Of a DNA stretch of 64,000 bases, positions 21,158-58,135 are shown one piece after another. Made by a program: the position numbers and the translations under genes. Positions within the stretch are counted from its first letter, which is position 1. Each line of letters starts with the position of its first letter. Where the stretch lies: assembly GCF_024586915.1 (NCBI RefSeq), contig NZ_JANBVS010000002.1, positions 248,001 through 312,000 on the forward strand, given 5' to 3'. Below the pieces are notes generated by a model that worked only from the letters and a program-made list of their open reading frames with translations, was not told the DNA's origin and ran no database searches. The DNA is from Bradyrhizobium sp. SRS-191 (GTDB lineage: Bacteria; Pseudomonadota; Alphaproteobacteria; Rhizobiales; Xanthobacteraceae).

Positions 21158-21186
21158 ACCCGGCCCACGGCCCGGAGACCATTTTC

Positions 21187-26319: not shown

Positions 26320-27219
26320 CTACAGCTCGATGCAGTTGGCGACCTTGCGCAGGCGAAGGATGCGATATTCGAAGCGGCCGTCCTCGATGCTGTCAAAGAA
26401 CTCGGAGCCTTCCGGCGCGAGGAAGTAGCTCATCAGGGCGGCGCGCGTCGGGTCGGCCGCGTCGGCCTCCTGCGCATTGAAGGCACGCAGCTGCACCTGC
26501 GCTGCCTCGCGCCGCGCGGCCAGCACGTTGGCGGTGATGTCGCGATCGGCCGCGATGACGAAGCCGTTGGTGGTGAGGAAATCGCGCGCATGCGCGAACT
26601 GCGCCGGCTGCAGCAGGTCGGTATAGGCGAAATGGCCGCCGACCCGCAGCACGCGATTGACCTCGCGGTAGAAGCGGTCGATGTCCGGATAAGCGTTGGA
26701 CGATTCGATGTTGGTGACGAGATCGAAGGTGCCGTCGCCGAAGGCGAGGTCCTCCGCGTCGCCCTGGAAGAAGCGCAGGCGCGGATCGGCGTGGGCCTGA
26801 CGGCAATGCGCGATGCTCGTCGGGTTGATATCGACACCCGTGAGGCTGCGCGGCGAAAACCGCGCGGCGAGCGCCGCCAGCGTGCCGCCACGGCCGCAGC
26901 CGACGTCGAGCACGTCGAGACCATCGACGCCGAGCGGCCCGAGCAGCTCCAGCACCAGCCGCACCGCGTGGCGATCGAGCATCGCGGCCGGCAGACTGCC
27001 GCTCCAATCGTCGGGCCGGCCCTCGACCGGCAGGTAGCCCCAGTTGAAGAACTGCACATAGCCATCGAGGCTGCCGTCGGAGAGATAGGTGTTGAGACCA
27101 TTGTAGAAGTCGATGACGCGCGACTTCAGCTGCGCCGGTGCAACGCCGAGGCGGTCGCCAAGACGGTCGCCAAGACGGTCGCGAAGACCGGCAGGCGGGA
27201 TGGCATCGTGCGAGTTCAT
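26320..27219 (-). CDS. SAM-dependent class I methyltransferase, paralogue of the next gene
   Basis: 299 residues. Motif I is 'VLDVGCGRGGT' near residue 105, followed by 'LTGVDINPTSIAHC', 'FDLVTNIESSNAYPDIDRFY' (core NIESSNAYP) and 'LRVGGHFAYTDLL'. It shares 'FFNWGYLP' and the whole layout with the downstream methyltransferase, from which it is separated by 12 bases. The N-terminus contains three LGDR units from a 12-bp DNA repeat. It starts inside the end of the bimodular NRPS (4-bp overlap). Role probably O- or N-methylation of the peptide. Confidence 0.88.
   Translation of the reverse strand: MNSHDAIPPAGLRDRLGDRLGDRLGVAPAQLKSRVIDFYNGLNTYLSDGSLDGYVQFFNWGYLPVEGRPDDWSGSLPAAMLDRHAVRLVLELLGPLGVDGLDVLDVGCGRGGTLAALAARFSPRSLTGVDINPTSIAHCRQAHADPRLRFFQGDAEDLAFGDGTFDLVTNIESSNAYPDIDRFYREVNRVLRVGGHFAYTDLLQPAQFAHARDFLTTNGFVIAADRDITANVLAARREAAQVQLRAFNAQEADAADPTRAALMSYFLAPEGSEFFDSIEDGRFEYRILRLRKVANCIEL
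27152..27187. repeat. 12-bp minisatellite inside a methyltransferase gene
   Basis: Three tandem copies of cggtcgccaaga (the last with one change) encode the repeated LGDR near residue 14-25 of the methyltransferase on the minus strand. The tract lies outside the catalytic fold, so copy number could vary freely. Confidence 0.75.
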
Positions 27220-30200
27220 CGGAGGCTCCGCCTGCGGTCGACGAGGGCATGGCGGCGGCGCTCGGCGCGATCGTCGACATCCTGAGTTTCAGCTGCCGCG
27301 GCCTTCTCCTCGGTCGTGAGCCTGGCCTGGTCGGCGATCGTGGTGGCGCGAAACAGGTCGATCAGCGCAAGCTCGCGGCCGAAATGGCTGTTGATGCGAT
27401 GGAGCAGGCGCACCAGCAGCAGTGAGTGGCCGCCGGCATCGAAGAAGTTGGTGGTGCGGTCGATGCGCTCGCGCTGCAACAGCTCCTGCCAGATCGCATG
27501 GACCGCATGCTCGGCGTCACCGGCCGGCGCTGCCGCCTCATTCATCTCGGAGGCGGCTGCGATCGGCGGCAGCGCGCGACGGTCGATCTTGCCGGTGCGG
27601 GCCAGCGGCATCCGCTCGATCACCGCGATCTGGGCGGGGATCATGTACTCCGGCAGCAGCCGGCCGAGATGCAGCTTCAGCTCGGGCCCGATACTGCGGC
27701 CGAGCGCGGTCTGCAGCGGATCGTTGGACAGCTCGGCCCATGGCTTCGTTGCCCGCGAGACCTCCAGGGGCGAGACGGGACGAGGGCTGCCTTGCGGATA
27801 CATCAGCACGTCGAACACGCCGTCGCCGGCACGCTCGGACAGCGCAAATTCCACCGCCAAGCCAGCGGCAGCCGCGGCCTGCGCGAGCTGCTCGGGATGC
27901 AGGGCCGGGGTGGGCGGCGGCGCATCGGGATCGATGGAGGCAAGCAGCTCAAGATCGTCCGTCAGGCGGCCGTCAGGCACGCCGGTGATGCAAACCGATC
28001 CATGCGTATGCGCGGCAGCGATCATCGCGGTGACCGGATCGGCGGCATCGAGTGTGGTCCAGGCCATCCTGACGGCGGGAGGCGACGAGTGAGTGGCACC
28101 CGTCTCGAGCTCCACCTCGTAGCGGTACTTGGTCAGCTCATTGGTCGCCATGCCGCGCTTGGCGACGAGCCGGACCGTTGCGCCATGCGCGGCGGCGACG
28201 TTGGTGAAGAAGGCAGGATCGAGCACCAGCTCCTTGTCGAAGCGGATGCGATTGGCGGCGCGGGCGAGAATGGCGGGTCCGCCGAGCGCATGCTGCCGCG
28301 CCTCGACGGAGACGGCGAACAGGCGCTGCAGGGGCAGCGACCTGATGTCGCCGAGATAGATCCGGCCTGATGGCGCGAGGCAGGCGAAGACGCCGTCGAG
28401 CACGCGGCGCAGATAGTCCCGGCTCGGGAAGTACTGGACGATCGAATTGAGGATGACGAGATCGAAATGCTGCAGCGGCAGGCCGGCGAAATCATCGGCC
28501 TCGCGCTGCTCGATGGTAACGTGGCTCCAGCCGTTGCGGCGCACGAGTTCGCGGGTGCCGGCCACCGCCGGCGGAGAGAAGTCGGTGCCGTGATAGGATG
28601 CGACCACACCGGCAAGGCCGCGCAGCAGCAGCCCGGTGCCGCAGCCGATTTCCAGGACGCGGCGCGGCTTCAGCGCCAGCAGCGCCTCGGTCGTCCTGGC
28701 CTGCCATTCGCGCATCTCGGCGACTGCGATCGGTCGGCCCGTGTAGCTGTCGTGCCAGCCGGCAAGATCGGCATCCGCCGCATCGGCGGCAGGAGCATAG
28801 GTGATCTCGTACAATTCGCGCCAGTCGGAGACGAACGCCTGGCCATGCTGCTGGTGCTGCACGGTCGCGATGTCCGGCTTGAGCGTGACGAAGGCTTCGA
28901 GGAACTTGTCGTCATCTGCCGTCCGCACGACGACGGCGGCCTCGGCGACCGCGGGATGACGGGCGAGCGCGAGCTCGATCTCCTCGATCTCGATGCGGTG
29001 GCCGCGGATCTTGACCTGATTGTCGCGCCGCCCGACGAACTCGATATTGTCATCCGGATCGAGCCGCACGAGATCGCCGCTGCGATAGAGCCTGGTGCCG
29101 TCGGCCGCCGTGACGAAGCGAGCCTCGGTCGCCTCGGTGTCGCCGAGATAACCGCTGGCGAGCCCGTTGCCGCCGATGCAAAGCTCGCCGGGCATGCCGG
29201 CCGGGACGGGCCTGAGATCGGCGTCGAGAATGCGGCAGATGACGCCCGGCAGCGGCCGTCCGATCGGCACGGTCGCGGCACGCTCGGTGAGCTCCGCGAT
29301 CGGATGGAACGTTGCGAAGGTCGTGGTCTCCGTCGGCCCATAGACGTGCAGCAGGCGGGCCGGCGGACCGGCCGCGAGCACGCTGCGGACATGGTCGGCA
29401 TTGACCGCCTCGCCGCCGAACAACACGAGCCGCAGCGATGCGAAGGCTGCAGGCTTCAGCTGGGCGACCTGGTTGAACAGCGCCGTGGTGAGGAACATGA
29501 CCGACATCGCACGCGCCTTCAGACATCGTGCGAGCGCATCGGGATCGAGCAGGGTCTGCTTGTTGACGAGAACGATGCAGCCGCCATTGAGCAGCGCGCC
29601 CCAGATCTCGAACGTGGCGGCATCGAACGACAGCGGGGCGGCCTGCGCGATGCGATCGTCAGGCCTCAGCGCGGCGTAGTCGGTGTCGAGAACGAGATTG
29701 GCGACTGCGCCCTGCGGCACGAGGATCGCCTTGGGCGTCCCGGTCGAGCCGGAGGTGAAGTTGACATAGGCCGGGCTGTCGGCGCCGATCAGATCCGGCG
29801 CGGGCAGCGCCGCGCGGATGCGCTCGTCCATGTCGCCCGGGATCACGATGCCGAGCGATTCATCGATCCGCCTGAGCACGTCGCGAAATGCGGCCGTGGT
29901 GATGACATGGCGGACACCGGCCTGCGTCAGCATCAGCGTAAGCCGTGCCTCGGGCAGGGCAGGATCGAGCGGCAGATAGGCGCCGCCGGCGCGAATGACG
30001 GCGAGCAGCATGACAATCGTTTCGATGGAGCGATCCGCGGCGATGCCGACGATGTCGCCAAGCTCGACGCCGGCTGCGACCAATTGCTCGCCGAGCACGC
30101 GGCTCGCTGTGTCGAGCGCAGCGTAGCTCAGCGCTCGGCCGTCATCGCCTTCGACGGCGATACGATCACCATGCGCCGTCGCGATCGCCTGGAAGCGGAT

Positions 30201-33200
30201 GGCCAGCCCGGCACTGCCGCTCGGCAGCGCGCGCGGCCGCTCCAACGCCCGCTGCTGCATCTGCAGATCAGACGGCAGCGCCAGGACGAGCGAGGCCAAG
30301 GGAGCGGCGGGTGCGTCCAGCGCGGCCGTCAGCAGCGTGGTGAACTGCGCAGCGAGACGTCTCGCTGTGGCCGCCGTGAAGAGATCGGTGGCATAGACCA
30401 GCAGACCCTCGATGGCGCCGTCGCGTTCAAACAAATGAGTCTCGATGTCGAACCGCGTGGTGCGGATGTCCACCGGGAATGGCGAAGCTTCGATGCCGGG
30501 CAGAGCGAGGCGGTCGTCGGTCGCGTTCTGCAGCGCGAATGCGACCTGAACCAGCGGATTGCGGGCGGGATCGCGATCGGGATGCAGGCGTTCCACCAAC
30601 TGCTCAAATGGCATGTCCTGGTGCTGGTAGGCCTCCAGCGCGACATTGCGCACGCGCGCGATCAGCGTTTCGAGCGACGGCGTGCCCGACAGGTCGAGCC
30701 GCAGCGCCAGCGTGTTGACGAAGAAGCCGATCAGATCCTCAGTCTCGTGGCGGTGGCGATTGGCGATCGGGCTCGCCACCGCGAAATCCTCCTGTGCGCC
30801 GGCGCGGCCGATGACGGCGCCGTAGATCGCGATCAAAATCATGAAGGGAGTCGCATTGCAGCGCTCGGACAGCGCTTTCAGGTGCGCCGTCGTCTGGGCG
30901 TCGATGGTGATCGGCACGATGCCGCCGCGATAGGACTGCCTCGTCGGACGGCGACAATCGAGCGGCAGGCGCAGCTCGGGCAGATCGGCAAGGCGGGCCG
31001 ACCAGGCTTCGAGCTGCTCACGCGCGCGAGCGCCGGAAAACCAGTCGCGCTGCCATGTTGCGAAATCAGCGTAACGCAGCGGCAACGGACGCAATGTGGC
31101 GCCGCTCATCAGCAGCGACAGCTCGCGCGCCAGCACGGTGAGCGACCAGCCGTCGCAGGCGATGTGATGCATCACCAGCGCTAGCACGGCGCTGTCGGTG
31201 GCGATCCGGACGAGCGTGGCGCGCAGCAGCGGCGGTTGCGTCAGGTCGAAAGGCTCGAGCGCCGCCTCCGCAACCAGCGCGCGCGCCTGCTCGCTGGCGT
31301 CCGGTCGATCGCGGAGATCGACCAAGTGCAACGGACAGCGCATCGGCTGCAGGGGCTCCTGCACGGATTGCCCGTCGCACTCCACCATCCGGCTGCGCAG
31401 CGGCTCGTGGCGGGCGATGATGGCATCGAGCGCGAGCTGGAGTGCGGCGATGTCGAGCGGCCCATCGAGCCGATAGGCGATCGGCACGTTGTAGCCGGCC
31501 GTGCCCGGGTCAAGACGTTCGAGAAACCAGAGCCGCTGCTGCGCAAAGGACAGCGGCGCGGCGCCAGGCGCGGCCCTGCCGGCGATCACCTCGCGGACCG
31601 GCGCCGTTGGAGCGCTCAGCGCGATGGCGGCGGCGAGCAGGCGCGGCGTCGGCTGCTCGAACACGAGCCGCAACGGCACGGCGAGTCCGCGCCGTTGCGC
31701 CAGCTGCGAGATCACGCGGGTGGCGAGCAGCGAATGTCCGCCATGCTCGAAGAAGTCGCTGTCGCGCCGGATCGGGTGGGCCAAGAGCTGCGACCAGATC
31801 GCGATGATCTCGGCTTCGAGATCGCCTGCTGCGTCGTGATCCGTCAGGAGCGTCGGTGGCGCCAGCGTGATGAGACGCAGCGCCGCCCGGTCGATCTTGC
31901 CGTGATCGCTGACCGGCATGCGCGCAATCTGCGTGATCCGGGATGGGATCATGTAGTCCGGCAGCTCCTGTCGCAGCCAGCGCAGGACGGAAAGGGGCTC
32001 GGTGCTCTCATCGTCGAGGGTGACCAAGGCTTCCAGAGACTTCTGCTCGCCGTCGCCGCGCACGATGACGGCCGCCTCAGCCACGGCCGGATGTCGTGCA
32101 AGCGCCAGCTCGACTTCCTCGACCTCGATGCGATGGCCGCGGATCTTGACCTGGTTGTCGCGGCGGCCGACGAACTCGATGTTGTTCTCGGGATCGAGCC
32201 GTGCGAGATCGCCGCTGCGATAGAGCCTGATGCCATCCCGGGCGGTGACGAAACGAGCGTCGGTGGCGGCGGAGTCGCCGAGATAGCCGTTGGCGACGCC
32301 GTTGCCGCCTATGCAGAGTTCGCCTGGCATGCCGGCTGGGACTGGCCTCAGCTCGGCATCGACGATACGGCAGATCACGCCGGGCAAAGGGCGTCCGATT
32401 GGCACGGTGGCCGCACGATCGGAGACCTGCTCGACCGGATGGAAGGTCGCGAAGGTCGTGGTCTCCGTCGGCCCGTAGACGTGGAGCAGGCGGCCGGGGG
32501 GACCTGCCGCGAGCACGCTGCGGACATGATCCGCGTTGACCGCCTCGCCCCCGAACAGCGCGAGGCGCAACGGCGCCAATGCAGCAGGCTTCGACTGGGC
32601 AAGCTGGTTGAACAGGGCCGTGGTGAGGAACATCACCGAGATCGCGCGATCCTTCAGGTCGCGGGCGAGCGCCTCGGCATCGAGCAAGGTGTGCTTGTCC
32701 ACCAGGACGATGCAGCCGCCATTGAGCAGCGCGCCCCAGATTTCGAAGGTCGCAGCATCGAACGAGAGCGGCGCGGCCTGGGCGATGCGATCCTCGGGCG
32801 TGAGCGCGGCGTAGTCGGTGTCGAGCACCAGGTTGGCGACCGCGCCCTGCGGCACCAGGATCGCTTTCGGCGTGCCGGTCGAGCCCGAGGTGAAGTTGAC
32901 ATAGGCCGGGCTGCCGGCCCCCATCAGTTCGGGTGCGGGCAGCGACGCGTCGGCGACCTCGCCCGAAGCATCGTCTGCAACAACAATCTCGAGAGAGACT
33001 TGAACTCCGATGAAGACGTCGCGCAGCCTGGCTGTGGTGACGATATGGCGAACACCGGCTTGCTTCAGCATCAGTTCGAGCCGCGCCGGCGGCAGCGCCG
33101 GATCGAGCGGCAGATAGGCGCCGCCGGCACGGATGACGGCAAGCAGCATCACGATGGTATCGACCGAGCGCTCGGTGGCCACACCGACGATATCGCCGAG

Positions 33201-34910
33201 ACCGATACCGGCAGCGACCAGCCGTTCACCAAGGGTGCAGCTGGCGAAGTCGAGTGCGGCATAACTCAGCGTCCGGCCGTCATCGCCTTCGACGGCGATA
33301 CGCTGGCTCTGCGCGACAGCGATCGCGGCGAAGCGGGCGGCGAGTCCGGTGTCGCCGCCGGGCAGCGCGCGTGGCCGCTCCAGCAGTTGCCGCTGGGCCA
33401 GCAGATCGGCCGGCGAGTCCAGCGGCAGGTCCGCAACGTGACTCTCGGGTGTAGCCAGGCAGACATCGAGCAGATGGACATAGCGGCGTAGCCAGCGCGC
33501 GGCGCCGCGGCGCGTAAAGCTGTCGCTGCGCGCGGTGAGCATCAGCCGCAGGCCGTCCTGATCGGCTGTGTCGCTGTCCGTCAGCTTAATCTCGCTGTCG
33601 GGAGCGGGTTCCAGCAGGGCCGACGTGGCGTGGCCGGCGAGCGGCCAGACGTGAAGTTCGAGATCGAAGCGGGTGGTGCCGCGCTCAAAGCCGATGGTGC
33701 TGACGTCAATGCCGTCCAAGGCGAGCGGCGTGTCGGGGGTGGCCTGATAGGCGAAGCTCGTGAGCGCGGGATCAGCGAGCAGGGCGGAGAGCGACGGTTC
33801 GCTGGTCGCCTCATCGCGCGAGGCGTCGAGCGCAGCAGCGAGATCGTCATGAACCTGGCCGAGCAGATCGACAAAGCGCATCGTGCTGTTGAAATCGGCG
33901 CTGACGATCAGGGTGTCGACATGGAAGCCGATCTGCTCGGCCAGCGCGGCATCGCGGCGACCCGCGGCCGGCACTGCAATGACTGGCGTCGGGCTTGCCG
34001 ATAGACGGGCAACGAGCAGCATCTGGACCGCCAGCAGCGTGGTCGCGACGCTGGTCCGGTGCTGACGGGCGAAGGCGCGCAAACGCGCGTGCAAGCGGGA
34101 CGGAACTCGTGCGGCCAGCGTGTGGCCACCGAAGCGCCGGCCGCTCGGGCGGATCGCGTCGTGCGGCACCGGCGCGGGGCTTGCGTCCGGCAATCGCGCC
34201 GGTGCGGTCCTGCGGACAGTGACCGAGGGGGGAGCCATGACAGGGCGGGGCGGGACTTGCCACGTCTGGTCATTCAGCCGCGCGTGATAGGCCGACGCCA
34301 GATCGCGGCAAAACACGGCGTGCGACCAGCCATCGGTGACGATGTGATGGATCAGGTGAATGAGGACGTGATCGTCTTCGGCGAAGCGGATCAGAGCGGC
34401 CTTGACGAGCGGCGGCTGATCCAGCGCGATCGGCTGTTGTGTGAGGCGAGAGGCGAGATCGCGCGCGACGGAGTCGCGCTCATGGCGGGCGACCTCCGAA
34501 CGATCAAGGCTCGTGATCTGAAATCGACAGGCTGCGGCAATGAAACGAACGGGCTCGCCATCGACGTCATGAAAACCGGTGCGCAGGGCATCATGTGCGG
34601 CGACGACATCGCCGAAGGCGGCTTCGAGGGCGGGGACGTCGAGACGGCCCGTCATGCGATAGGCCGCCGAGACATTGTAGAGGGCCTCGTCGGGCGCAAG
34701 CCGGCTGGCAAACCACAGTCGCTTCTCAGCAGCCGAGAGGCGCGACGCGTCACGCAGATGAGCGATGATGTCGGTCCGGTGTGCCGCGATTGACTGGCGC
34801 AGCTCTTCGCTCAGCGCGCCCGCAGGGGCGCGAAAGCGCAACTGCTCACCGTCCATGAACAGGACGACGCCGCGGCTCCGAAGCGTTGCGAGAAGGGAGC
34901 CTGCGGTCAC
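27216..34910 (-). CDS. bimodular NRPS: TubC-C-A-PCP-C-A(nMT)-PCP
   Basis: 2564 residues. TubC-type docking domain at 1-52 ('LLATLRSRGVVLFMDGEQLR'). C1 has an intact 'HHIVTDG' (188-194). A1 spans about 525-1010 ('FTSGSTGTPKAI' near 673). PCP1 is 'GGHSLLAT' near 1058. C2 has 'HHIACDG' near 1248. A2 begins about 1555 and carries an inserted N-methyltransferase ('VLEIGCGTG' near 2090). PCP2 is 'GGHSLLLV' near 2493. Both A domains read the ten-residue pocket DAFFLGVTFK, close to known isoleucine/valine codes, and are nearly identical to each other. It should add two aliphatic residues, the second N-methylated. There is no TE, so the chain must move to another protein. Start is GTG inside the stop of the A-PCP gene. 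Confidence 0.95.
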   Translation of the reverse strand: MTAGSLLATLRSRGVVLFMDGEQLRFRAPAGALSEELRQSIAAHRTDIIAHLRDASRLSAAEKRLWFASRLAPDEALYNVSAAYRMTGRLDVPALEAAFGDVVAAHDALRTGFHDVDGEPVRFIAAACRFQITSLDRSEVARHERDSVARDLASRLTQQPIALDQPPLVKAALIRFAEDDHVLIHLIHHIVTDGWSHAVFCRDLASAYHARLNDQTWQVPPRPVMAPPSVTVRRTAPARLPDASPAPVPHDAIRPSGRRFGGHTLAARVPSRLHARLRAFARQHRTSVATTLLAVQMLLVARLSASPTPVIAVPAAGRRDAALAEQIGFHVDTLIVSADFNSTMRFVDLLGQVHDDLAAALDASRDEATSEPSLSALLADPALTSFAYQATPDTPLALDGIDVSTIGFERGTTRFDLELHVWPLAGHATSALLEPAPDSEIKLTDSDTADQDGLRLMLTARSDSFTRRGAARWLRRYVHLLDVCLATPESHVADLPLDSPADLLAQRQLLERPRALPGGDTGLAARFAAIAVAQSQRIAVEGDDGRTLSYAALDFASCTLGERLVAAGIGLGDIVGVATERSVDTIVMLLAVIRAGGAYLPLDPALPPARLELMLKQAGVRHIVTTARLRDVFIGVQVSLEIVVADDASGEVADASLPAPELMGAGSPAYVNFTSGSTGTPKAILVPQGAVANLVLDTDYAALTPEDRIAQAAPLSFDAATFEIWGALLNGGCIVLVDKHTLLDAEALARDLKDRAISVMFLTTALFNQLAQSKPAALAPLRLALFGGEAVNADHVRSVLAAGPPGRLLHVYGPTETTTFATFHPVEQVSDRAATVPIGRPLPGVICRIVDAELRPVPAGMPGELCIGGNGVANGYLGDSAATDARFVTARDGIRLYRSGDLARLDPENNIEFVGRRDNQVKIRGHRIEVEEVELALARHPAVAEAAVIVRGDGEQKSLEALVTLDDESTEPLSVLRWLRQELPDYMIPSRITQIARMPVSDHGKIDRAALRLITLAPPTLLTDHDAAGDLEAEIIAIWSQLLAHPIRRDSDFFEHGGHSLLATRVISQLAQRRGLAVPLRLVFEQPTPRLLAAAIALSAPTAPVREVIAGRAAPGAAPLSFAQQRLWFLERLDPGTAGYNVPIAYRLDGPLDIAALQLALDAIIARHEPLRSRMVECDGQSVQEPLQPMRCPLHLVDLRDRPDASEQARALVAEAALEPFDLTQPPLLRATLVRIATDSAVLALVMHHIACDGWSLTVLARELSLLMSGATLRPLPLRYADFATWQRDWFSGARAREQLEAWSARLADLPELRLPLDCRRPTRQSYRGGIVPITIDAQTTAHLKALSERCNATPFMILIAIYGAVIGRAGAQEDFAVASPIANRHRHETEDLIGFFVNTLALRLDLSGTPSLETLIARVRNVALEAYQHQDMPFEQLVERLHPDRDPARNPLVQVAFALQNATDDRLALPGIEASPFPVDIRTTRFDIETHLFERDGAIEGLLVYATDLFTAATARRLAAQFTTLLTAALDAPAAPLASLVLALPSDLQMQQRALERPRALPSGSAGLAIRFQAIATAHGDRIAVEGDDGRALSYAALDTASRVLGEQLVAAGVELGDIVGIAADRSIETIVMLLAVIRAGGAYLPLDPALPEARLTLMLTQAGVRHVITTAAFRDVLRRIDESLGIVIPGDMDERIRAALPAPDLIGADSPAYVNFTSGSTGTPKAILVPQGAVANLVLDTDYAALRPDDRIAQAAPLSFDAATFEIWGALLNGGCIVLVNKQTLLDPDALARCLKARAMSVMFLTTALFNQVAQLKPAAFASLRLVLFGGEAVNADHVRSVLAAGPPARLLHVYGPTETTTFATFHPIAELTERAATVPIGRPLPGVICRILDADLRPVPAGMPGELCIGGNGLASGYLGDTEATEARFVTAADGTRLYRSGDLVRLDPDDNIEFVGRRDNQVKIRGHRIEIEEIELALARHPAVAEAAVVVRTADDDKFLEAFVTLKPDIATVQHQQHGQAFVSDWRELYEITYAPAADAADADLAGWHDSYTGRPIAVAEMREWQARTTEALLALKPRRVLEIGCGTGLLLRGLAGVVASYHGTDFSPPAVAGTRELVRRNGWSHVTIEQREADDFAGLPLQHFDLVILNSIVQYFPSRDYLRRVLDGVFACLAPSGRIYLGDIRSLPLQRLFAVSVEARQHALGGPAILARAANRIRFDKELVLDPAFFTNVAAAHGATVRLVAKRGMATNELTKYRYEVELETGATHSSPPAVRMAWTTLDAADPVTAMIAAAHTHGSVCITGVPDGRLTDDLELLASIDPDAPPPTPALHPEQLAQAAAAAGLAVEFALSERAGDGVFDVLMYPQGSPRPVSPLEVSRATKPWAELSNDPLQTALGRSIGPELKLHLGRLLPEYMIPAQIAVIERMPLARTGKIDRRALPPIAAASEMNEAAAPAGDAEHAVHAIWQELLQRERIDRTTNFFDAGGHSLLLVRLLHRINSHFGRELALIDLFRATTIADQARLTTEEKAAAAETQDVDDRAERRRHALVDRRRSLR

Positions 34911-36742: not shown

Positions 36743-36745
36743 ATC

Positions 36746-37030: not shown

Positions 37031-37043
37031 CGGTCTGGTCCTT

Positions 37044-49143: not shown

Positions 49144-52100
49144 CGCAAGCCCTCTCCACGCATGCGCAGCGCGCGCCCGCGGATTCCGCTCGCGGTGCTC
49201 ACGGCGGCCGGGTGCGCTGCCGCACCGATGTGACGCGCCAGCGCCGCCACGGTCGGAAACTGGAACAGGTCGGCGATGGCGAGCGGCACGGCAAAGCTGC
49301 TGACCAGTTTGTCGTAGGCCTCCACCAGCAGCAGCGAATTGCCGCCGAGTTCGAAGAATGTGCTGTCGACGTCGACGTCGACGTCGTCGCGGCGGAGCAC
49401 CGCGCTCCAGATCGCAGCGATCGCTTGTTCGGTCGCGCTGCGCGGCGCGGGTTGGTTCAGCGGCGACGAGGAGGCGAACGGCCGGCCGGCAGCACTCAGC
49501 GCGGCGCGATCGACCTTGCCGTTGGCAGACAAGGGGAGCGCATCGAGTTGCAGGAAGCGGGCCGGCATCATGTAGTCGGGCAGGCGGGGCCGCAGCCAGT
49601 CACGCAGGGCATGCGGCATAAGAGCCGGTGAGCCGGGAACGACGCAGGCGACGAGTTGGCGGTGGCCGCCCGCATCGCGCTCGGCGATGACAGCGCAATC
49701 GGCAACACCGGGATGAGCGGCGAGCACCACCTCGATCTCGCCCGGCTCGACGCGGTAGCCCCGGATCTTGATCTGGTTGTCGCGCCGGCCCAGGAATGCG
49801 AGACGCCCATCGCGGTTCAGCTTGACGATATCGCCGGTGCGATACATGCGGGCGTCGGCGGCGAACGGATCAGCGACGAAGCGATCCGCCGAGGCGTCGC
49901 CGCCGAGATAGCCATCGGCAACCTGAACGCCGGCAATGCAGAGTTCGCCGGCAGCGCCATAGGGCTGTAGCCGGCCTTCTGCATCGAGGACATACAGGCG
50001 ATTGCCCGGCAGCGCGCGCCCGGCCGGTGGCAGCATGGGCCAATGCGAGGGATCGCCGTCGAGCACTTCCTCGCTCACCACGTGGGTCTCGGCAGGGCCG
50101 TACTGATTGATCAGCCGGAGGCCGGGATGACCAATGAAAAGACCGCGGACCTCGTCGGTGAGTTGGGGCTGCTCACCCGCGGTGATGATCTCACGCAGCC
50201 ATGGAAGGTGTCGCCCGGAGGTGACGACGCCGCGCGCCAGCAGCGCGACGAGCGGGAAGGGGAGAAAGACGCGTGCGATCTGCTCTCGTGCCATCAGCGC
50301 GGCGAGTTGCTGCGGATCACGCCGCTGCGCTTCAGGCGCCGGGACCAGCGTGCCGCCCGTCAGCAGCGTGAAAAACACCTCCTGGATCGCGACGTCGAAG
50401 CCGACCGCGGAGGCCAGCAGCGTCCGCATCGGCTGCGGACGGATGGCGAGCTGAGATGCCATCAAGTTGGCAAAGGCGTGCGTGGGCATACGGATGCCCT
50501 TCGGCGTGCCGGTCGAACCCGAGGTGAACACGATGTAGAGCGGAGCGTGATTGCACGCGTCAGGCAGGGCAATGACGTCGCGGCCGATGTTGCCGATCAA
50601 CGTGTCGATCGTCGTGCACGGCGCACCGATCGCCGCGTCGGCTCCACGCTCGCTCGCGCAGAGCACCAGTGCGGCACCGGCGAGCGCGATCTGCTGCGTG
50701 AGACGGAGCGGCGGCAGCTCGGGGTCGACAGGCGCAAACGGGAAGCCGAAGCGGGCGCAGGCCAGCATGGCGGCGACGAGATCGCGGCCACGGGGGAGCA
50801 CCAGCGCGACGACGTCTCCGGCGGCGAGGCCACGTGCGCAGAGCGCCGATCCGATCCGGTCGGCAAGATCGTAGAGCTGATCATAGGTGAGATCGGGTCC
50901 GCACCCGTCATGTAAGGCGCAGCCTTCGCCGAAACGCGTGCGCGCCGTCTCCAGGAGCGCGCACAGCTCAACATGCGGAGCCGGACCGCCATCGCCGGCT
51001 GCCAGGATGGCGGCCTGTGCGGCCGCATCAAGCAGGGGATAGTCGGTGAGCGGACGGTCTGGCGTCGCGAGCGCGGCCGCGAGCCAGATCTTCAGCATCC
51101 TGATCAGGTCGGTCATCGTCGCGCTATCGAACAGATCGCTGTTGTAGAACAACGTGCCCGTCAGCCCGGCGTCGATATCGCGTGCCCCGGTCCAGCTCTG
51201 CCGGCCGTCCCACAGATGCAGCTCGAGATCGAAGCGCGCCGCCGGCAGTCGATACGGAAATGCGGCCGTCGACAGGCCTTCGAGCTGCAGCGGCCGCATC
51301 GGCGCATTCTGCAGCGCGAACAGCACCTGCACCAGCGGGTTGCGGCTGGTGTCCCGCGGCAGATTCAGGTCATCGACCAGCTTCTCGAATGGCAGGTCCT
51401 GATGCGCCTGGGCCTGGATCATCGCCTCGCCGGTGCGGCGGACGAGATCGCTGAAATCCTTTGCTCGCGCGAGATCGAGCCTGATCGCCAACGTGTTGAC
51501 AAAGAAGCCGATCAGATTCTCCAGCGCCGGATCGGTGCGTCCGGCGACGGGCGTGCCGATCGCGAAATCAGTTTGTCCTGCGATCCGGCCGAGCACCGCG
51601 CGGAATGCCGCAAGCAGCACGCAATAGAGCGTCGTCGACTGCTGCCGCGCCAGCTCGCTCGCCGCGGCGATCAGATCCGGTTCGAGGCTGACATCGATCG
51701 AGGCGCCACGCAGCCTTGCGAGCGCCGGCCGCGGCCGGTCGAGCGGCAAGTCGAGGACGGGAAGGCCGTCGAGCGTGGTCTTCCAGGCATCGAGCAGATG
51801 TTGCAGCCGCGTGCCGCTCAGTGCGGCCCGCTGTGCCGTGCTGAAGCTCGCATAGTCGGTCGCGAGCGGGACGAGGCTCGGACTCTCGCCGTGCCGGCGT
51901 GCAGCATAGGCAGCTGCGAGATCGCGATTGAAGACCGCAAGCGACCAGCCATCGGCGCAGATGTGATGGAGCACGATGACCAGGATATGACGGTGCGGCG
52001 TCAGCCTGATCAGCCTGGTCCTGAACACTGCCGCGCGCAGATCGAATGGCTTGGCCACTTCAGCGTCGACCAGGCTCCGGGCGGCATCCTCATCGGCCGC

Positions 52101-52448
52101 ATCGACGAGCGGTAGAGCGACCCGCAGCGCAGGCAGCACCGTCTGCACCGGCTTGCCGTCGATCTCGGCAAAGACGGTGCGCAGCGGCGCGTGCTGCGCG
52201 ACCAGGTCGTTCAGCGCCTCCGTCAGGGCGGCGACGTCGAGAGGTCCTGACAGATCAAAGGCGCCCGGGATGTTGTAGGCGGGGCTGCCGGGATTCAGGC
52301 GGTCGAGAAACCACAGCCGTTGCTGCGCAAATGAGAGAGCGTAGCTGTGCGGCTGATCGGTGCGACGGCTCAGGAGTTGCGTCAGCAGGGCGCGCTGCTC
52401 CGCCGCGGACATCTTGGCCAGGTCTGGCGTGAGCCGCGCGGCGGTCAT
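49140..52448 (-). CDS. NRPS module, C-A-PCP, proline-like code
   Basis: 1102 residues. C domain with 'HHICADG' near 159; A domain with 'VFTSGSTGTPKGI' near 644, 'QYGPAETHVV' and 'GKVDRAAL' near 979; PCP 'LGGNSLLLV' near 1034. Pocket residues read DVQFIAQVVK, one or two changes from known proline codes (DVQLIAHVVK), so proline or a close relative is the likely substrate. A run of alternating Asp-Val codons (49365-49390) lies just before the PCP. Sits between two PKS genes with 4-bp overlaps, so an amino acid is inserted between two ketide steps. Confidence 0.94.
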   Translation of the reverse strand: MTAARLTPDLAKMSAAEQRALLTQLLSRRTDQPHSYALSFAQQRLWFLDRLNPGSPAYNIPGAFDLSGPLDVAALTEALNDLVAQHAPLRTVFAEIDGKPVQTVLPALRVALPLVDAADEDAARSLVDAEVAKPFDLRAAVFRTRLIRLTPHRHILVIVLHHICADGWSLAVFNRDLAAAYAARRHGESPSLVPLATDYASFSTAQRAALSGTRLQHLLDAWKTTLDGLPVLDLPLDRPRPALARLRGASIDVSLEPDLIAAASELARQQSTTLYCVLLAAFRAVLGRIAGQTDFAIGTPVAGRTDPALENLIGFFVNTLAIRLDLARAKDFSDLVRRTGEAMIQAQAHQDLPFEKLVDDLNLPRDTSRNPLVQVLFALQNAPMRPLQLEGLSTAAFPYRLPAARFDLELHLWDGRQSWTGARDIDAGLTGTLFYNSDLFDSATMTDLIRMLKIWLAAALATPDRPLTDYPLLDAAAQAAILAAGDGGPAPHVELCALLETARTRFGEGCALHDGCGPDLTYDQLYDLADRIGSALCARGLAAGDVVALVLPRGRDLVAAMLACARFGFPFAPVDPELPPLRLTQQIALAGAALVLCASERGADAAIGAPCTTIDTLIGNIGRDVIALPDACNHAPLYIVFTSGSTGTPKGIRMPTHAFANLMASQLAIRPQPMRTLLASAVGFDVAIQEVFFTLLTGGTLVPAPEAQRRDPQQLAALMAREQIARVFLPFPLVALLARGVVTSGRHLPWLREIITAGEQPQLTDEVRGLFIGHPGLRLINQYGPAETHVVSEEVLDGDPSHWPMLPPAGRALPGNRLYVLDAEGRLQPYGAAGELCIAGVQVADGYLGGDASADRFVADPFAADARMYRTGDIVKLNRDGRLAFLGRRDNQIKIRGYRVEPGEIEVVLAAHPGVADCAVIAERDAGGHRQLVACVVPGSPALMPHALRDWLRPRLPDYMMPARFLQLDALPLSANGKVDRAALSAAGRPFASSSPLNQPAPRSATEQAIAAIWSAVLRRDDVDVDVDSTFFELGGNSLLLVEAYDKLVSSFAVPLAIADLFQFPTVAALARHIGAAAHPAAVSTASGIRGRALRMRGEGLR
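49365..49390. repeat. GTCGAC microsatellite in the NRPS linker
   Basis: Tandem gtcgac units encode alternating Asp and Val just ahead of the carrier domain of the proline-type NRPS. It is a likely length-variable site in a linker. Confidence 0.6.
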
Positions 52449-55400
52449 GTCGGTTGCCCCTCCGCCAGCAGCCGCTCCAGCATCCGGTTGACCTCGTCGC
52501 CCGACATCACCTCGACCATGCGACGCGCCTCCTCGCTCACCGGTCGGACCAGATCGACAGCAGGAGAGGCTGTACTCGGCGGCTGCGCGGCAGCGAGATG
52601 ATCAAGCGCGGCCGCGAGCCGAGCCGGAGTGGTGTGCGCGAACAACAGATCGGGCGTGACCGGCAATGCGAAGCGCAGCCGCAGGCGTGAGACGACCTGG
52701 ATGGCCTGCAGCGAGTCGCCGCCGAGATCGAAGAAGTCACCGTCGTGAGGCAGATCGGACCGCCCGAGCACCTCGGCGAAGATGTCGCGAATGCCGTGCA
52801 CGCGATCCGTCGCACCGCCGACGACAGCATCATTCGCGGTGGCGGCGTGTCCGGCCAATGCAGTCCAGCGCGCAAGGCGTTCGTCGAGATCACCGCCGCA
52901 GACGACGAGCTGGCCAGTCAATCCTCCGGCCACGACACGCTCGATGGCGTCGATCGCTTGCGACGTCGTGAGCGCGTAGCCCGCCGACGCGACGTCGTCA
53001 GCATCCAATCCTTCCGACCACGCGTCCCAGCACAGCGAAGCCCAGCGGCCATCACGCTCTGCATAGGCGTCGAGCCAGGCATTCGCCGCCGCGTAGGAGG
53101 AGAAGCCGAGCCCGCCGAGCAGCGAGGCGAGCGACGACATCAGGATGCGCACACTGAGCTCGCGCTTGCCGAGCACGTTGTCGAGCGCTTGCACGCCCGC
53201 GACTTTTGCCGCGAGCATACGCTTCGACGTGGCCTCGTCAGTGTCATGAATGGATGCGAAGGCGCGGGTCTCGGCGGCCATATGAATGATGCCGTCGAGC
53301 GGGCCGAACGTCGCTTCGGCGGCGACGACCGCGCTGTTGAGGGCGTCGCCGTCAGTGACGTCGCACGAGAACGCCTGGGCAGAACCACCTTGTGCCGTCA
53401 CGTCTTCAAGCCGGCGGACGATGTCATCGGGCACCGAGCGGCCGAGCAGCGACAGGCGGGCGCCGTGCCGGCTGGCAAGCTCGCGCGCCACGGTCAGGCC
53501 GAGCCGGCCGAGACCGCCGGTGATGAGATAGTGCCCGTCGAGCTTGGCGGTCTTATCGACGGCGCCGACCGGACGGAAGCTGCGTTCCAATACGCGGTCG
53601 CCTCGCAAGGCAGAGATGGAGGCGCCCGACGCGGCGCAGGCGGTGACGATAGCAGCATTTCGCACGTCACGGCCGACATCGAGGATGCGCACCGTGACGT
53701 TCGGCTGTTCCTGACCGAGCACAATGGCCGGCCCGAGCATCAGGGCGACGTCCGGATCGGGACGGTCCGTGTTGTCGACCGCGAACGCATCACGTGCGAG
53801 CACGGCCAGGTCGATGGGGGCCGCGACGTTGGCGGCTTCCAGCGCGGCTCCGATCCGGAGCAGTGACCGATAGCCGCGCTCGCGTGCATCGCCGCTCACG
53901 TCCTGCAGCAGCGCGAGGTGCACGATGCGGTCGGGGACCCCGGCACGCAGGTGCGCGATCAATTCGCCATGGTCGGTAGTCGCCGACACCTGCATTAGCC
54001 GTCCACCGGCCCGGTCGATGGCGGCAGCGATGGTCCGGGTGAGGTCACCCCCGGCGTCACCAACGATCCAGGTCATTCCGTCCAGCGCACGCGGGACACG
54101 TCGTGGCCTGCGCTCCCAGGCCGGCACGAACAGGATCTCGCTTTGTGCAGACGGTCGGCCGGCAGGAGGCGGCGCCGACAGCGCGAGATCGGCGATCATG
54201 TCGACAGCGTAGCGGGTCGCCCGGAAAGGATAGGGCGGCAGTGACACCGGCTGTTGCTGTCGGCTCTCGTTGAAGGCCTGCCAATCCAGCTCGCAGCCCT
54301 GCGCATAAAGTTCGGCAATCGCCGTATAAGTGGCGCGCGCCTCGTCGATGTCGGCGGACGACGGCTGCGGTAGCATGGCGACGATCTCGGTGTCGGGCGT
54401 GCGTGCGGCGTGCCGGCGCGCGAAGCCGCCCAGAACTTTGCCTGGCCCCATCTCGATCAGGATATGAGGTTGCTGCGCCAGCACGGACGCCAGCCCGTCC
54501 AGGAAGCGCACCGGCGAGAGCGCCTGGAGAATCCAGTAGGCAGGATCGCAAGCCTCTGCGCTGCTGAGCCAGCCGCCATGGACATTGGAAGCGATCGGGA
54601 TGCGCGGTGCAGCCAGCGGCGTCCGCGCGAGCGTCGACCTGAAGGTGTCGAGCGCGGGCTCCAGCAGGTGCGAATGGAAGGCGCGGCTGGCGGGCAGCCT
54701 CCGCGTCTGCACGCCCATCGCTCTCCAGCGCGCGTCCTGCTGCTCGATCGCCTCGGGCGTGCCGGAGATCACGCATTGCGTCGCTGTATTCACGGCGGCG
54801 AGCCGCAGGTCGGGACCGAGCTTGCCGACTCCGGCTTCGCCGAGGGCGACCGCGAGCATCGCGCCGGCAGGGCTCGCTTGCATGGCCTCGCCGCGCGCCA
54901 CCACCAGCGCCAGGGCGGCGTCTTCCGACATGACTCCGGCAAGGCAGGCCGCGGTCAGCTCGCCGATGCTGTGACCGATCAGGCACGCCGGGAGCAGTCC
55001 CCAATGCATCAAGAGTCGGCCGAGCGCATATTCGATCACGAACAGCGCCGGCTGGGTCCACCGGGTGTCGCCGAGGGCGGCCGTATCCAGGCGGCCAATT
55101 TCGATCACCTGCCGGATATCGGTGCCGGTCAGCCGCAGGATCGTTGCGGCACACCGATCGACGACATCCTTGAAGCGCGGCTCGGTGCGGAGCAGGCCGC
55201 TGCCCATGGCGATGAATTCCGCGCCCTGGCCGGGAAACATGAAGCACAGCGGGCGCTTCGTGGCGCCGACGCGGCTCGAGATCACCGCGCCATTGCCATT
55301 GCAGATATCGCGAGCTTCGCTGGCCGTTGCCGCGACGACGGCGCGTCGCCGGGGGAAGTGGCGCCGCCGCGTCTGCAGCGTGAAGGCGACGTCAGCGATG

Positions 55401-56836
55401 TCGGGCGGCTGCGAAGCCGACAGCGTGGCGCCGAGCCTGTGGACCATCGTATCGGCGACGTCATCGTCCGGCGCCGAGAGCGGCAGGATCAACGGACGCT
55501 GGTTTGCCGTCTCCCGAACGACTGGCGCGGGCGCTTCCTGCAGCACGGCATGGGCATTGGTGCCGCCGATGCCGAAGGAGCTGACGGCCGCGAGCCGCGC
55601 GCGATCCGACGTCCAGGGCTGTAGACGGTCGTTGATGGCAAAACGCGTGCGGCCCAGCTCCAGCTTGGGATTGGCGCTGCGATAATGCAGCGTCGGCGGG
55701 ATCTCTCGGTGGTGGAGTGCGAGCGCCGCCTTGATCAGGCCAGCGACGCCTGCGGCGGCCTTGAGATGCCCGACATTGCTCTTCAGCGATCCGATCCAGC
55801 AGCGGGTCGCTCCCGGCTCTGCCGGCCCGAATGCCTCGGCGAGCGCGGCGATCTCGATCGGATCGCCCATCACGGTGCCGGTGCCATGCGCCTCGATGAA
55901 GCCGATCTCGGATGGATCGACGCCAGCCACCTTGCGCGCCAACGTCAGCACATCGGCCTGACCCTGAATGCTGGGGGCCGTAAAGCCGACCTTGCGGCCG
56001 CCATCATTGTTGATCGCGGTGCCGCGGATCAGCGCATAGATGCGATCGCCGGCCTCGAGCGCATCCTCGATCCGCTTGAGTGCGATGACGCCGACCCCGT
56101 TCGACGGCAGGGTGCCCGCTGCGTCGGCATCGAACGGCCGGCAGCAGCCATCCGGCGACTCCACCGAACCATGCGCGAAGGTATAGCCCTCGGCATTGGG
56201 CGTGCTGATCGACACGCCACCGGCCAGCGCGAGATCGGATTCAAACGTCAGCAGCGACTGGCAGGCCAGGTGAACCGCGACCAGCGAGGTCGAGCAGGCG
56301 GTCTGTACGGTCAGGCTCGGTCCGCGCAGATCAAGCTTGTAGGAGACGCGGGTGGCGAGGAAATCCGGGCTGTTGCCGAAGAAGACCGGTGTCGACTTCG
56401 CGGCTTCCACAACATCACGCGTGCGCGCGAGCAGGGCAGCCTGGTGGCTCTGCTCGGCCTCGCCGGCGAACACACCGATCCAGCCCTTGAACGTCGCGGG
56501 ATCGCAGCCGGCATCTTCGAGCGCGTGCCAGCAGCTCTGCAGAAACCAGCGGTGCTGCGGATCGAGATAGGCGGCCTCGCGCGGCGCAATGCCGAAGAAC
56601 TCCGCATCGAAGCAGTCGCCTTCCTCGATCAGGCCCTTGGCTGGGACATAGTCGGGATGGTCGACCAGCGATGCGGGAAGTCCAGCCGCGATCAGCTCGT
56701 CGCGCGAGAGGCGGCGCACGCCATCGCGCCCCTCGCGCAGCAGCGACCAGAACGCTGCGATATCGGCGGCGCCGGGGAAACGCCCGGCCATGCCGACGAT
56801 TGCGATGCTGCCGGGGGGCACGGACGCCGACGTCAT
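52445..56836 (-). CDS. PKS module, KS-AT-KR-ACP, malonyl-type AT
   Basis: 1463 residues. KS with 'TACSTSLV' (Cys near 178), 'EAHGTGT' and 'KSNVGHLKAA'; AT with 'GHSIGELTAA' near 620 and 'RAFHSHLLEP' near 719, the AFH pattern of malonyl-CoA domains; KR with 'GGLGRLGLTVA' near 1109, 'LMSSLAS' and 'SSYAAANAW' near 1252; ACP 'LGGDSLQAI' near 1372. No DH or ER, so it should add two carbons and leave a beta-hydroxyl. It is the first synthase gene of the operon, but its KS is not a KSQ and no acyl-loading domain precedes it, so it most likely accepts a peptide from another protein. Confidence 0.94.
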   Translation of the reverse strand: MTSASVPPGSIAIVGMAGRFPGAADIAAFWSLLREGRDGVRRLSRDELIAAGLPASLVDHPDYVPAKGLIEEGDCFDAEFFGIAPREAAYLDPQHRWFLQSCWHALEDAGCDPATFKGWIGVFAGEAEQSHQAALLARTRDVVEAAKSTPVFFGNSPDFLATRVSYKLDLRGPSLTVQTACSTSLVAVHLACQSLLTFESDLALAGGVSISTPNAEGYTFAHGSVESPDGCCRPFDADAAGTLPSNGVGVIALKRIEDALEAGDRIYALIRGTAINNDGGRKVGFTAPSIQGQADVLTLARKVAGVDPSEIGFIEAHGTGTVMGDPIEIAALAEAFGPAEPGATRCWIGSLKSNVGHLKAAAGVAGLIKAALALHHREIPPTLHYRSANPKLELGRTRFAINDRLQPWTSDRARLAAVSSFGIGGTNAHAVLQEAPAPVVRETANQRPLILPLSAPDDDVADTMVHRLGATLSASQPPDIADVAFTLQTRRRHFPRRRAVVAATASEARDICNGNGAVISSRVGATKRPLCFMFPGQGAEFIAMGSGLLRTEPRFKDVVDRCAATILRLTGTDIRQVIEIGRLDTAALGDTRWTQPALFVIEYALGRLLMHWGLLPACLIGHSIGELTAACLAGVMSEDAALALVVARGEAMQASPAGAMLAVALGEAGVGKLGPDLRLAAVNTATQCVISGTPEAIEQQDARWRAMGVQTRRLPASRAFHSHLLEPALDTFRSTLARTPLAAPRIPIASNVHGGWLSSAEACDPAYWILQALSPVRFLDGLASVLAQQPHILIEMGPGKVLGGFARRHAARTPDTEIVAMLPQPSSADIDEARATYTAIAELYAQGCELDWQAFNESRQQQPVSLPPYPFRATRYAVDMIADLALSAPPPAGRPSAQSEILFVPAWERRPRRVPRALDGMTWIVGDAGGDLTRTIAAAIDRAGGRLMQVSATTDHGELIAHLRAGVPDRIVHLALLQDVSGDARERGYRSLLRIGAALEAANVAAPIDLAVLARDAFAVDNTDRPDPDVALMLGPAIVLGQEQPNVTVRILDVGRDVRNAAIVTACAASGASISALRGDRVLERSFRPVGAVDKTAKLDGHYLITGGLGRLGLTVARELASRHGARLSLLGRSVPDDIVRRLEDVTAQGGSAQAFSCDVTDGDALNSAVVAAEATFGPLDGIIHMAAETRAFASIHDTDEATSKRMLAAKVAGVQALDNVLGKRELSVRILMSSLASLLGGLGFSSYAAANAWLDAYAERDGRWASLCWDAWSEGLDADDVASAGYALTTSQAIDAIERVVAGGLTGQLVVCGGDLDERLARWTALAGHAATANDAVVGGATDRVHGIRDIFAEVLGRSDLPHDGDFFDLGGDSLQAIQVVSRLRLRFALPVTPDLLFAHTTPARLAAALDHLAAAQPPSTASPAVDLVRPVSEEARRMVEVMSGDEVNRMLERLLAEGQPT

Positions 56837-58050: not shown

Positions 58051-58135
58051 TTGTCCGACGGAGTTGCCGCACACCGAATCATGACAACAGACTATCCGAT
58101 TAGAAGACGCGTCCTTGTGAACTATCGCATAAGTC

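What the first reader, a model, noticed from the sequence alone, without database searches (positions are those of the whole stretch)
27216..56836. Dolastatin/auristatin-like assembly line in a rhizobial genome
Seen: seven carrier domains on five proteins; A-domain pocket codes DAFFLGCVFK (loading A-PCP), DAFFLGVTFK twice (second with in-line N-methyltransferase), DVQFIAQVVK (Pro-like), DAFTVAAVWK (Phe-like); two KS-AT-KR-ACP modules with no DH or ER; no epimerase; TE only after the Phe module; two free methyltransferases. Known: dolastatin 10/symplostatin is Dov-Val-Dil-Dap-Doe. Dil is N-Me-Ile plus a reduced acetate with O-methyl, Dap is Pro plus a reduced ketide with O-methyl, and Doe derives from Phe. 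Inference: chaining A-PCP, bimodule, malonyl PKS, Pro module, second PKS and Phe-TE module gives the same unit order, all-L, ending in a Phe acid as in auristatin F. That would be a new soil/plant-associated source of this scaffold, known to me mainly from marine cyanobacteria.
Basis: partly seen in the sequence, partly recalled or inferred. Interest (0 to 1): 0.96.

Follow-up and report, generated by a model that had tools for sequence, protein, structure and literature searches.

The report
Land-bacterium dolastatin-order assembly line
A soil and plant-associated Bradyrhizobium carries an intact, evolutionarily conserved set of enzymes predicted to join building blocks in the same order as the marine tubulin-binding peptide dolastatin 10, but it likely caps the product with a formyl group and would end it in phenylalanine, so it would be a new land-based source of a relative of this drug scaffold.

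Summary
The same 13 genes plus a formyltransferase, in the same order and orientations, occur in three other genomes of the genus and in one of another family that matches Phreatobacter aquaticus, 55-77% identical per protein. The 14 genes tested are under purifying selection; the catalytic motifs examined are intact.

The unit order now has a test. The bimodule (5 of 5 genomes) and Pro module (4 of 5) end in the basic tail typical of NRPS-to-KS joins; the A-PCP ends in the tail typical of NRPS-to-NRPS joins, and the bimodule begins with a TubC docking domain. Both KSs group with NRPS-fed KSs. This gives aliphatic, Ile/Val, N-Me-Ile, ketide, Pro, ketide, Phe, TE.

It predicts an N-formyl start. 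There is no Cys/thiazole module. Backbone order dolastatin/auristatin-like, but not dolastatin 10; no product is known.

The parts
24521..25429 (+). Formyltransferase (Fmt/ArnA-like), convergent to the operon; predicted to N-formylate the starter amino acid
   Evidence: Pfam Formyl_trans_N/C; NLH and DDG motifs kept in 5 of 5 genomes; next to the cluster in 5 of 5; 4 of 265 genus genomes at E <= 1e-25, the same four as for the methyltransferase
25417..26307 (-). Free methyltransferase b (predicted O-methyltransferase)
   Evidence: Best NCBIfam models: phthiotriol/phenolphthiotriol dimycocerosates MT and fatty-acid O-MT Mtf2, both below cut-off; conserved in 5 of 5
26320..27219 (-). Free methyltransferase a (predicted O-methyltransferase), paralog of b at 44-48% identity
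   Evidence: ATGA overlap with the bimodule
27216..34910 (-). NRPS bimodule TubC_N-C-A-PCP-C-A-nMT-PCP; both A codes DAFFLGVTF(K), Ile/Val-like; basic C-terminal tail
   Evidence: tail test
34907..36742 (-). NRPS loading module A-PCP, code DAFFLGCVF(K), aliphatic; C-terminal FEAGVL docking tail
36746..37030 (-). 94-aa orphan protein, predicted single long helix
   Evidence: 5 homologs (one in Phreatobacter aquaticus, context of the four unnamed ones not seen); present in 5 of 5 clusters; model (mean pLDDT 77.7, pTM 0.38)
37490..38716 (-). ArsA/GET3/TRC40-family ATPase with HSP20-like C-terminal domain
   Evidence: in a sample of 385 class-level genomes only the window's own has it at E <= 1e-60
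38713..39543 (-). Type II thioesterase
   Evidence: Pfam PF00975; GHSMG motif 5 of 5; start at the ATG overlapping the patatin stop
39540..40637 (-). Patatin-like phospholipase, nearest NCBIfam model CBASS phospholipase (95 bits, below its cut-off of 200)
40634..44632 (-). NRPS module C-A-PCP-TE, code DAFTVAAVW(K), Phe-like; chain release
   Evidence: gramicidin S synthetase 1 and tyrocidine synthase 1 are the best PDB chains matched by a single stretch, a third unnamed chain close behind
44629..49143 (-). PKS2 KS-AT-KR-ACP; AT motif VGGH (IGAH in the Phreatobacter-matched genome) in place of HAFH
49140..52448 (-). NRPS module C-A-PCP, code DVQFIAQVV(K), Pro-like; basic C-terminal tail
52445..56836 (-). 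PKS1 KS-AT-KR-ACP; AT motif RAFH, malonyl-type
   Evidence: start from ATGA overlap
56833..58074 (-). MFS exporter (Bcr/CflA-like), first gene of the operon
58456..59109 (+). Phosphopantetheinyl transferase next to the cluster in the window genome, G246, G002 and G222; not found in the fetched 40 kb of G328

Best explanation
This is an intact, conserved NRPS-PKS gene cluster predicted to make a linear, likely N-formylated pentapeptide-type molecule whose units would run in the dolastatin/auristatin order and which would be released as a phenylalanine acid. Shown by sequence: the domains, pocket residues, catalytic motifs, docking tails, synteny and selection. Inferred steps: (1) the A-PCP loads Ile/Val and the free formyltransferase formylates its amine; the N-terminus is the only free amine that the backbone would have. 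(2) The A-PCP tail docks on the TubC domain of the bimodule, which adds Ile/Val and N-methyl-Ile/Val. (3) The basic tail of the bimodule hands the chain to a NRPS-fed KS (PKS1), which adds malonate and reduces it to a beta-alcohol, giving a dolaisoleuine-like unit. (4) The Pro module, then PKS2 with an AT that lacks the malonyl-gating Phe, give a dolaproine-like or nor-dolaproine-like unit. (5) The two paralogous methyltransferases likely O-methylate the two alcohols. (6) The Phe module and TE release the acid, and the MFS pump exports it.
For: Codes: 24 of 25 A domains identical across five genomes. DAFFLGVTFK carries Ile/Val in cyanopeptolins and L-Ile in suomilide-type peptides (passages). 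DVQFVAQVVK, one change from ours, is listed for Pro (passage). Gramicidin S synthetase 1 and tyrocidine synthase 1 (261 and 253 bits) are the best PDB chains matched by one stretch for the Phe A domain. Order: at least 5 Arg/Lys in the last 25 residues in 18 of 19 NRPS-to-KS tails against 3 of 32 NRPS-to-NRPS tails; bimodule 5 of 5 genomes, Pro module 4 of 5. Acidic/hydrophobic end in 21 of 32 against 0 of 19; A-PCP 5 of 5. KS1 and KS2 fall with 31 of 32 NRPS-fed KSs (SH-aLRT 100) and away from 31 of 32 PKS-fed ones. ATGA/GTGA overlaps at 8 of 8 joins tested. Formyltransferase: conserved and co-occurring. Methyltransferases: the two best models are methyltransferases of hydroxyl-type substrates (the substrate class of the phthiotriol enzyme is recalled). 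AT1 scores 156 bits with CurL but 105-109 with Lsd14 fusion/PikAI; AT2 scores 158 against 147-152. A 722-aa frame matches the acid-CoA-mutase model TIGR00640, so methylmalonyl-CoA is likely available.
Against: No product, mass or enzyme activity is known. Most named PKS-fed KS controls are actinobacterial, and the full tree has 75 unlabelled KSs on the same side, so KS grouping alone is weak. Twelve of the 19 NRPS-to-KS tails are near-copies (seven myxobacterial, five Nostocales), so they are not independent. The methyltransferases score 139-163 bits against cut-offs of 300-400. The loading and Phe codes were not found in print. AT2 fits neither the malonyl nor the methylmalonyl motif; both ATs score best with a chain (5yda) whose substrate I do not know, and AT1 also scores 158 bits with a DEBS/EryA2 chain (11sz), so the PDB contrast is not uniform. 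The formyltransferase is only a distant Fmt/ArnA relative and could act on another substrate. Patatin, ArsA and the orphan have no assigned step. Swapping PKS1 and PKS2 in the order is not excluded by the tails.
Confidence: 0.62

Rival explanations
1. Strict dolastatin/auristatin analogue: the starter is N,N-dimethylated by one of the free methyltransferases, and the formyltransferase is a bystander or acts elsewhere.
For: Unit order and pockets as above; two free methyltransferases are present; dolastatin 10 starts with a dimethylated amine (recalled).
Against: The formyltransferase is kept in all five clusters and in the genus occurs (E <= 1e-25) only in the four carriers. The two methyltransferases are paralogs whose best models are not N-methyltransferases, matching the two alcohols in number.
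Confidence: 0.17
2. PKS1 starts the chain with an acyl unit (the patatin could supply a fatty acid), so the product is a lipopeptide acyl-ketide-Pro-ketide-Phe, and the A-PCP/bimodule acts elsewhere.
For: PKS1 is the first synthase gene of the operon; a patatin is encoded; the operon order differs from the assembly order.
Against: PKS1 has no loading domain; its KS groups with NRPS-fed KSs. The bimodule has no release domain, and its tail is of the NRPS-to-KS kind in 5 of 5 genomes.
Confidence: 0.08
3. Same assembly line, but the TE cyclises the chain (macrolactone or macrolactam), or hydroxyls stay free.
For: TE function cannot be read from the motif; the methyltransferase assignment is by resemblance only.
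Against: A formylated N-terminus and methylated alcohols would leave no nucleophile for ring closure.
Confidence: 0.13

Closest known systems
Dolastatin 10 / symplostatin 1 / auristatins (marine cyanobacterium Caldora penicillata; described in PMC12415834, passages read)
   Same: Linear peptide with two amino acids each extended by a two-carbon PKS unit; predicted order aliphatic, aliphatic, N-Me-Ile ketide, Pro ketide, Phe-derived end.
   Different: Predicted N-formyl instead of N,N-dimethyl start; no Cys/thiazole module; ends as a Phe acid; discrete methyltransferases; no C-methyl domain. Among the 120 listed hits the bimodule's next full-length relatives outside Bradyrhizobium and Phreatobacter are 33-38% identical, so no near copy is visible there.
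Linear gramicidin synthetase LgrA (formylating NRPS initiation; recalled)
   Same: Formyltransferase-fold enzyme associated with an aliphatic loading A-PCP.
   Different: Here the formyltransferase is a separate gene on the opposite strand, not a fused F domain.
Tubulysin assembly line (TubC docking domain; recalled)
   Same: TubC_N docking domain, Ile/N-methyl modules, hybrid NRPS-PKS.
   Different: No pipecolate, thiazole or ER-containing parts.
Pepstatin / statine-forming NRPS-PKS lines (PMC12081711, search listing only)
   Same: Amino acid + malonate + ketone reduction to a gamma-amino-beta-hydroxy acid.
   Different: Two such units, one from Pro, predicted O-methylated, Phe end.

Membership tests
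Modular hybrid NRPS-PKS | C, A, carrier, KS, AT, KR and TE with intact active sites | tested here: met
   C HHxxxDG 20 of 20, carrier Ser 35 of 35, KS Cys-His-His 10 of 10, AT GHSxGE 10 of 10, TE 5 of 5 over five genomes; KR Ser-Tyr-Asn 9 of 10 by pattern, the tenth read
Dolastatin 10 / auristatin | Unit order aliphatic-aliphatic-N-Me-Ile ketide-Pro ketide-Phe | tested here: met
   Pockets, docking tails, KS grouping; prediction only
Dolastatin 10 / auristatin | N,N-dimethylvaline start | tested here: inconclusive
   Aliphatic loading pocket met; formyltransferase conserved instead; no in-line MT on the A-PCP
Dolastatin 10 / auristatin | Two O-methyl groups on the ketide alcohols | tested here: inconclusive
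   Two paralogous MTs nearest to the phthiotriol MT and Mtf2 O-MT models, below cut-offs
Dolastatin 10 / auristatin | Alpha-methyl on the Pro-derived ketide only | tested here: inconclusive
   No C-MT domain; AT2 VGGH lacks the Phe of HAFH, AT1 RAFH keeps it; extender not proven
Dolastatin 10 | Cys module giving the thiazole of dolaphenine | tested here: not met
   TE directly after the Phe module; no further module in the cluster
Linear-gramicidin-type formylated initiation | Formyltransferase acting on loading aminoacyl-PCP | tested here: inconclusive
   Gene conserved and cluster-linked with NLH and DDG motifs kept; activity untested
Any of the above | Chemical structure of the product | not testable with these tools
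   No metabolomics available here

The most novel reading that the evidence does not exclude
Plant-associated Bradyrhizobium and a Phreatobacter, independently of the marine cyanobacteria or by old transfer, make an N-formyl auristatin-F-like tubulin-binding peptide with a dedicated ArsA/patatin/94-aa cassette of unknown role. That would be the first terrestrial, proteobacterial route to the dolastatin scaffold, which legume symbionts would make next to eukaryotic cells.
Probability: 0.4. Interest if true: 0.9.

Novelty: new variant of a known kind. Interest (0 to 1): 0.72.

Why it matters
Dolastatin 10 was the starting point for MMAE, the payload of several approved antibody-drug conjugates (PMC12415834, passage). 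One open-access library holds no paper with both Bradyrhizobium and dolastatin, and no title reporting a dolastatin 10 gene cluster stands in the listings (25 of 63 shown; 9 of 9; 17 of 17); of these I read passages of two papers only. A Bradyrhizobium with an intact cluster of the same unit order would make the biosynthesis of this scaffold testable by gene deletion. It would also raise the question of why a legume-associated bacterium would make a peptide of a class known to hit tubulin.

Tried and rejected
PKS1 as chain starter: rejected on docking tails and KS grouping. Extender choice of AT2: tried PDB scores, a neighbour search and a motif census of 191 AT domains from its relatives and the fetched loci; left open, because its motif belongs to neither textbook class. 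Ethylmalonyl-CoA supply: no CCR above cut-off in the genome, so ethylmalonate is unlikely. A copy of the cluster in the other methyltransferase-positive genomes G433 and G407: rejected; there the methyltransferase frame also matches a thioesterase and follows large PKS-like frames that do not match the cluster. A cyanobacterial sister cluster: among the 79 loci only L009 (Bradyrhizobium aeschynomenes) shows the cluster's gene set; L013 and L046 share the bimodule string Dk-C-A-P-C-A-nMT-P, but NRPS modules, not a KS, follow it. Literature for the loading and Phe codes: nothing found. PMC8602731 was opened because the search listed dolastatin 10; the word is only in its reference list. Papers holding ArsA, patatin, nonribosomal peptide and polyketide synthase together: none. 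The RND pump at 19967-24327 was considered as part of the cluster and left out for want of evidence; the fetched stretch of G328 ends about 0.7 kb past the formyltransferase, so its absence there is not shown. The KS loci (own genome) were fetched but not used.
Full report
WHAT IS THERE. On the minus strand of the window an operon runs from an MFS exporter (58074) through PKS1, a Pro-type NRPS module, PKS2, a Phe-type module with TE, a patatin, a type II TE, an ArsA/GET3-like ATPase, a 94-aa protein, an A-PCP protein and a C-A-PCP-C-A-nMT-PCP bimodule, to two methyltransferases. A formyltransferase (24521-25429, plus strand) meets the last methyltransferase tail to tail. All 8 joins tested overlap by ATGA or GTGA. 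There is no Pfam sign (E <= 0.001) of DH, ER, epimerase or C-methyltransferase, and no dual C/E motif.

WHOSE IT IS. The window lies in a 7.62 Mb draft genome with 37 condensation-family matches, some of them fragments of one domain. The bimodule's best relatives are six Bradyrhizobium proteins (90, 85, 80, 80, 79 and 78% identity: ORS 285, USDA 4353, SZCCHNR2011, 83002, ORS 375, SSBR45G) and one of Phreatobacter aquaticus (58%, full length). The next full-length hits in the list are at 33-38%. The call listed the best 120 of 6294 hits and scored only the 7985 candidates sharing most words.

CONSERVATION. All 265 genus genomes have some match to methyltransferase a, but only 4 have a near relative (E below 1e-160); the next genome is at 2.8e-32. 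In a sample of 397 genomes of the order it passes 1e-40 in four: the window's own, G328, and G433 and G407 with unrelated surroundings. I fetched the neighbourhoods. G246, G002, G222 and G328 hold the same 13 genes in the same order as the window, plus the formyltransferase in the same relative orientation. Identities to the window are 85-97% for G246 and 55-77% for G328 over the 13 proteins. dN/dS (own Nei-Gojobori script) is 0.075-0.437 for 14 genes in two comparisons, all 28 values below 1; the highest pair is the 94-aa gene, whose frame was read with upstream sequence. The cluster is a kept unit, not a relic.

POCKETS. Nine positions read by motif and alignment give DAFFLGCVF, DAFFLGVTF, DAFFLGVTF, DVQFIAQVV, DAFTVAAVW. 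Over five genomes 24 of 25 domains agree; the exception is F to Y in one loading domain. The tenth letter K was assumed, and the PheA numbering is recalled. DAFFLGVTFK is tabulated with Ile and Val in Planktothrix cyanopeptolins (PMC2533009, passage) and is said to give L-Ile, or D-allo-Ile if an epimerase follows, in suomilide-type peptides (PMC13122637, passage). DVQFVAQVVK is listed for Pro in a table entry given in brackets, so possibly predicted (PMC9113097, passage). For the Phe A domain the best PDB chains matched by one stretch are gramicidin S synthetase 1 (261 bits) and tyrocidine synthase 1 (253 bits), with an unnamed adenylation protein at 249; linear gramicidin synthase A and an unnamed peptide synthetase score higher with two stretches. 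That the first two take Phe is recalled.

ORDER. The gene order is not the assembly order, so I tested the joins. Among the loci fetched by then (window and L009 left out), 19 NRPS proteins precede a KS protein and 32 precede another NRPS protein. At least five Arg/Lys in the last 25 residues: 18 of 19 against 3 of 32. Acidic residues with a hydrophobic last residue: 0 of 19 against 21 of 32. One search shows the tails (Mann-Whitney p 1.3e-8, on rows that are not independent: seven of the 19 are myxobacterial and five Nostocales near-copies). The bimodule tail (DRAERRRHALVDRRR) fits the first class in 5 of 5 genomes and is strikingly like myxobacterial NRPS-to-KS tails (DRAQQRRQAIRRQGRR). The Pro module fits in 4 of 5. 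The A-PCP tail (FEAGVL) fits the second class in 5 of 5; the bimodule, which starts with a TubC_N docking domain, is its natural acceptor. In a tree of 74 KSs both queries lie on the side with 31 of 32 NRPS-fed KSs and 1 of 32 PKS-fed KSs (SH-aLRT 100). Against over-reading this: 106 of 170 extracted KSs had no label, the ten query KSs among them; most named PKS-fed rows are actinobacterial; and in the tree of 167 rows the query side also holds 75 unlabelled KSs.

EXTENDERS AND TAILORING. AT1 has RAFH in 5 of 5; AT2 has VGGH in four and IGAH in one. AT1 scores 156 bits with CurL against 105 with an Lsd14 fusion and 109 with PikAI; AT2 scores 158 against 152 and 147. But both score best with 5yda, of unknown specificity to me, and AT1 also scores 158 with a DEBS/EryA2 chain, 11sz. 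That CurL is malonyl-type and PikAI methylmalonyl-type is recalled. Loss of the Phe that gates alpha-substituents, a 722-aa match to the acid-CoA-mutase model TIGR00640 and no crotonyl-CoA carboxylase/reductase above cut-off make methylmalonate at PKS2 possible. That would place an alpha-methyl where dolaproine has one, but it is not shown. The two methyltransferases are paralogs (44-48% identity). Their two best NCBIfam models are the phthiotriol/phenolphthiotriol methyltransferase and the fatty-acid O-methyltransferase Mtf2 (139 and 161-163 bits, below cut-offs of 300 and 400). Two alcohols and two such enzymes match in number.

THE MISSED PART. The formyltransferase (Fmt/ArnA-like, 71-79 bits to its three best family models) keeps its NLH and DDG motifs in five genomes. 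In the genus it passes 1e-25 in 4 of 265 genomes, exactly the four with the methyltransferase, each of which I saw to hold the cluster. The backbone would have one free amine, the N-terminus, so N-formylation is the natural prediction; linear gramicidin is a known precedent (recalled). This departs from the N,N-dimethylvaline of dolastatin 10.

UNEXPLAINED CASSETTE. In a sample of 385 class-level genomes only the window's own has the ArsA-like ATPase at 1e-60. The 94-aa protein has five homologs among 5.8 billion proteins: one in Phreatobacter aquaticus and four unnamed, context not seen. Its model is one long helix. ArsA is the least changed of the 13 proteins in all four comparisons. These genes are linked to the pathway, but I can assign no step.

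LITERATURE. PMC12415834 (passages) describes dolastatin 10 as a linear peptide with two amino acids each extended by malonate, a cyclised C-terminal Cys, and Caldora penicillata as producer. Searches of the open library listed no paper on such a cluster in Bradyrhizobium; most subscription papers are not in it.

VERDICT. Real, intact and conserved; backbone order dolastatin/auristatin-like with good support; N-formyl rather than dimethyl likely; no thiazole; product unknown. New variant of a known kind.

Noticed in passing
window 31896-33350 and 28881-30194 (the two bimodule A domains): The two Ile/Val A domains of the bimodule are 78-98% identical to each other within one genome (94.5% in G002, 98% in G328), which suggests gene conversion between them.
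   Followed up: partly
window 36746-37030: 94-aa orphan protein with a stretch of about 30 residues almost unchanged between genera, predicted as one long helix; five homologs found, four of them unnamed.
   Followed up: partly
window 37490-40637: An ArsA/GET3-like ATPase and a patatin nearest to the CBASS phospholipase model sit inside the biosynthetic operon; role unknown.
   Followed up: partly
window 19967-24327: RND efflux pump with membrane-fusion protein next to the cluster, also near it in L009 and in part in G246; the fetched stretches of G222 and G328 end too soon to tell.
   Followed up: no
G000 contigs C2, C10, C28, C35, C1, C11: The same genome holds further large NRPS loci, including open frames of 4151, 4115 and 3780 aa.
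   Followed up: no
L127/L132 (G433) and L128/L134 (G407): In another family of the order a related methyltransferase (38-39% identity) shares a frame with a thioesterase match behind large PKS-like frames.
   Followed up: no
window 44629-49143, AT of PKS2: AT motif VGGH/IGAH; among the 191 AT domains examined [VI]AAH motifs are common, a class whose extender preference I could not place.
   Followed up: partly
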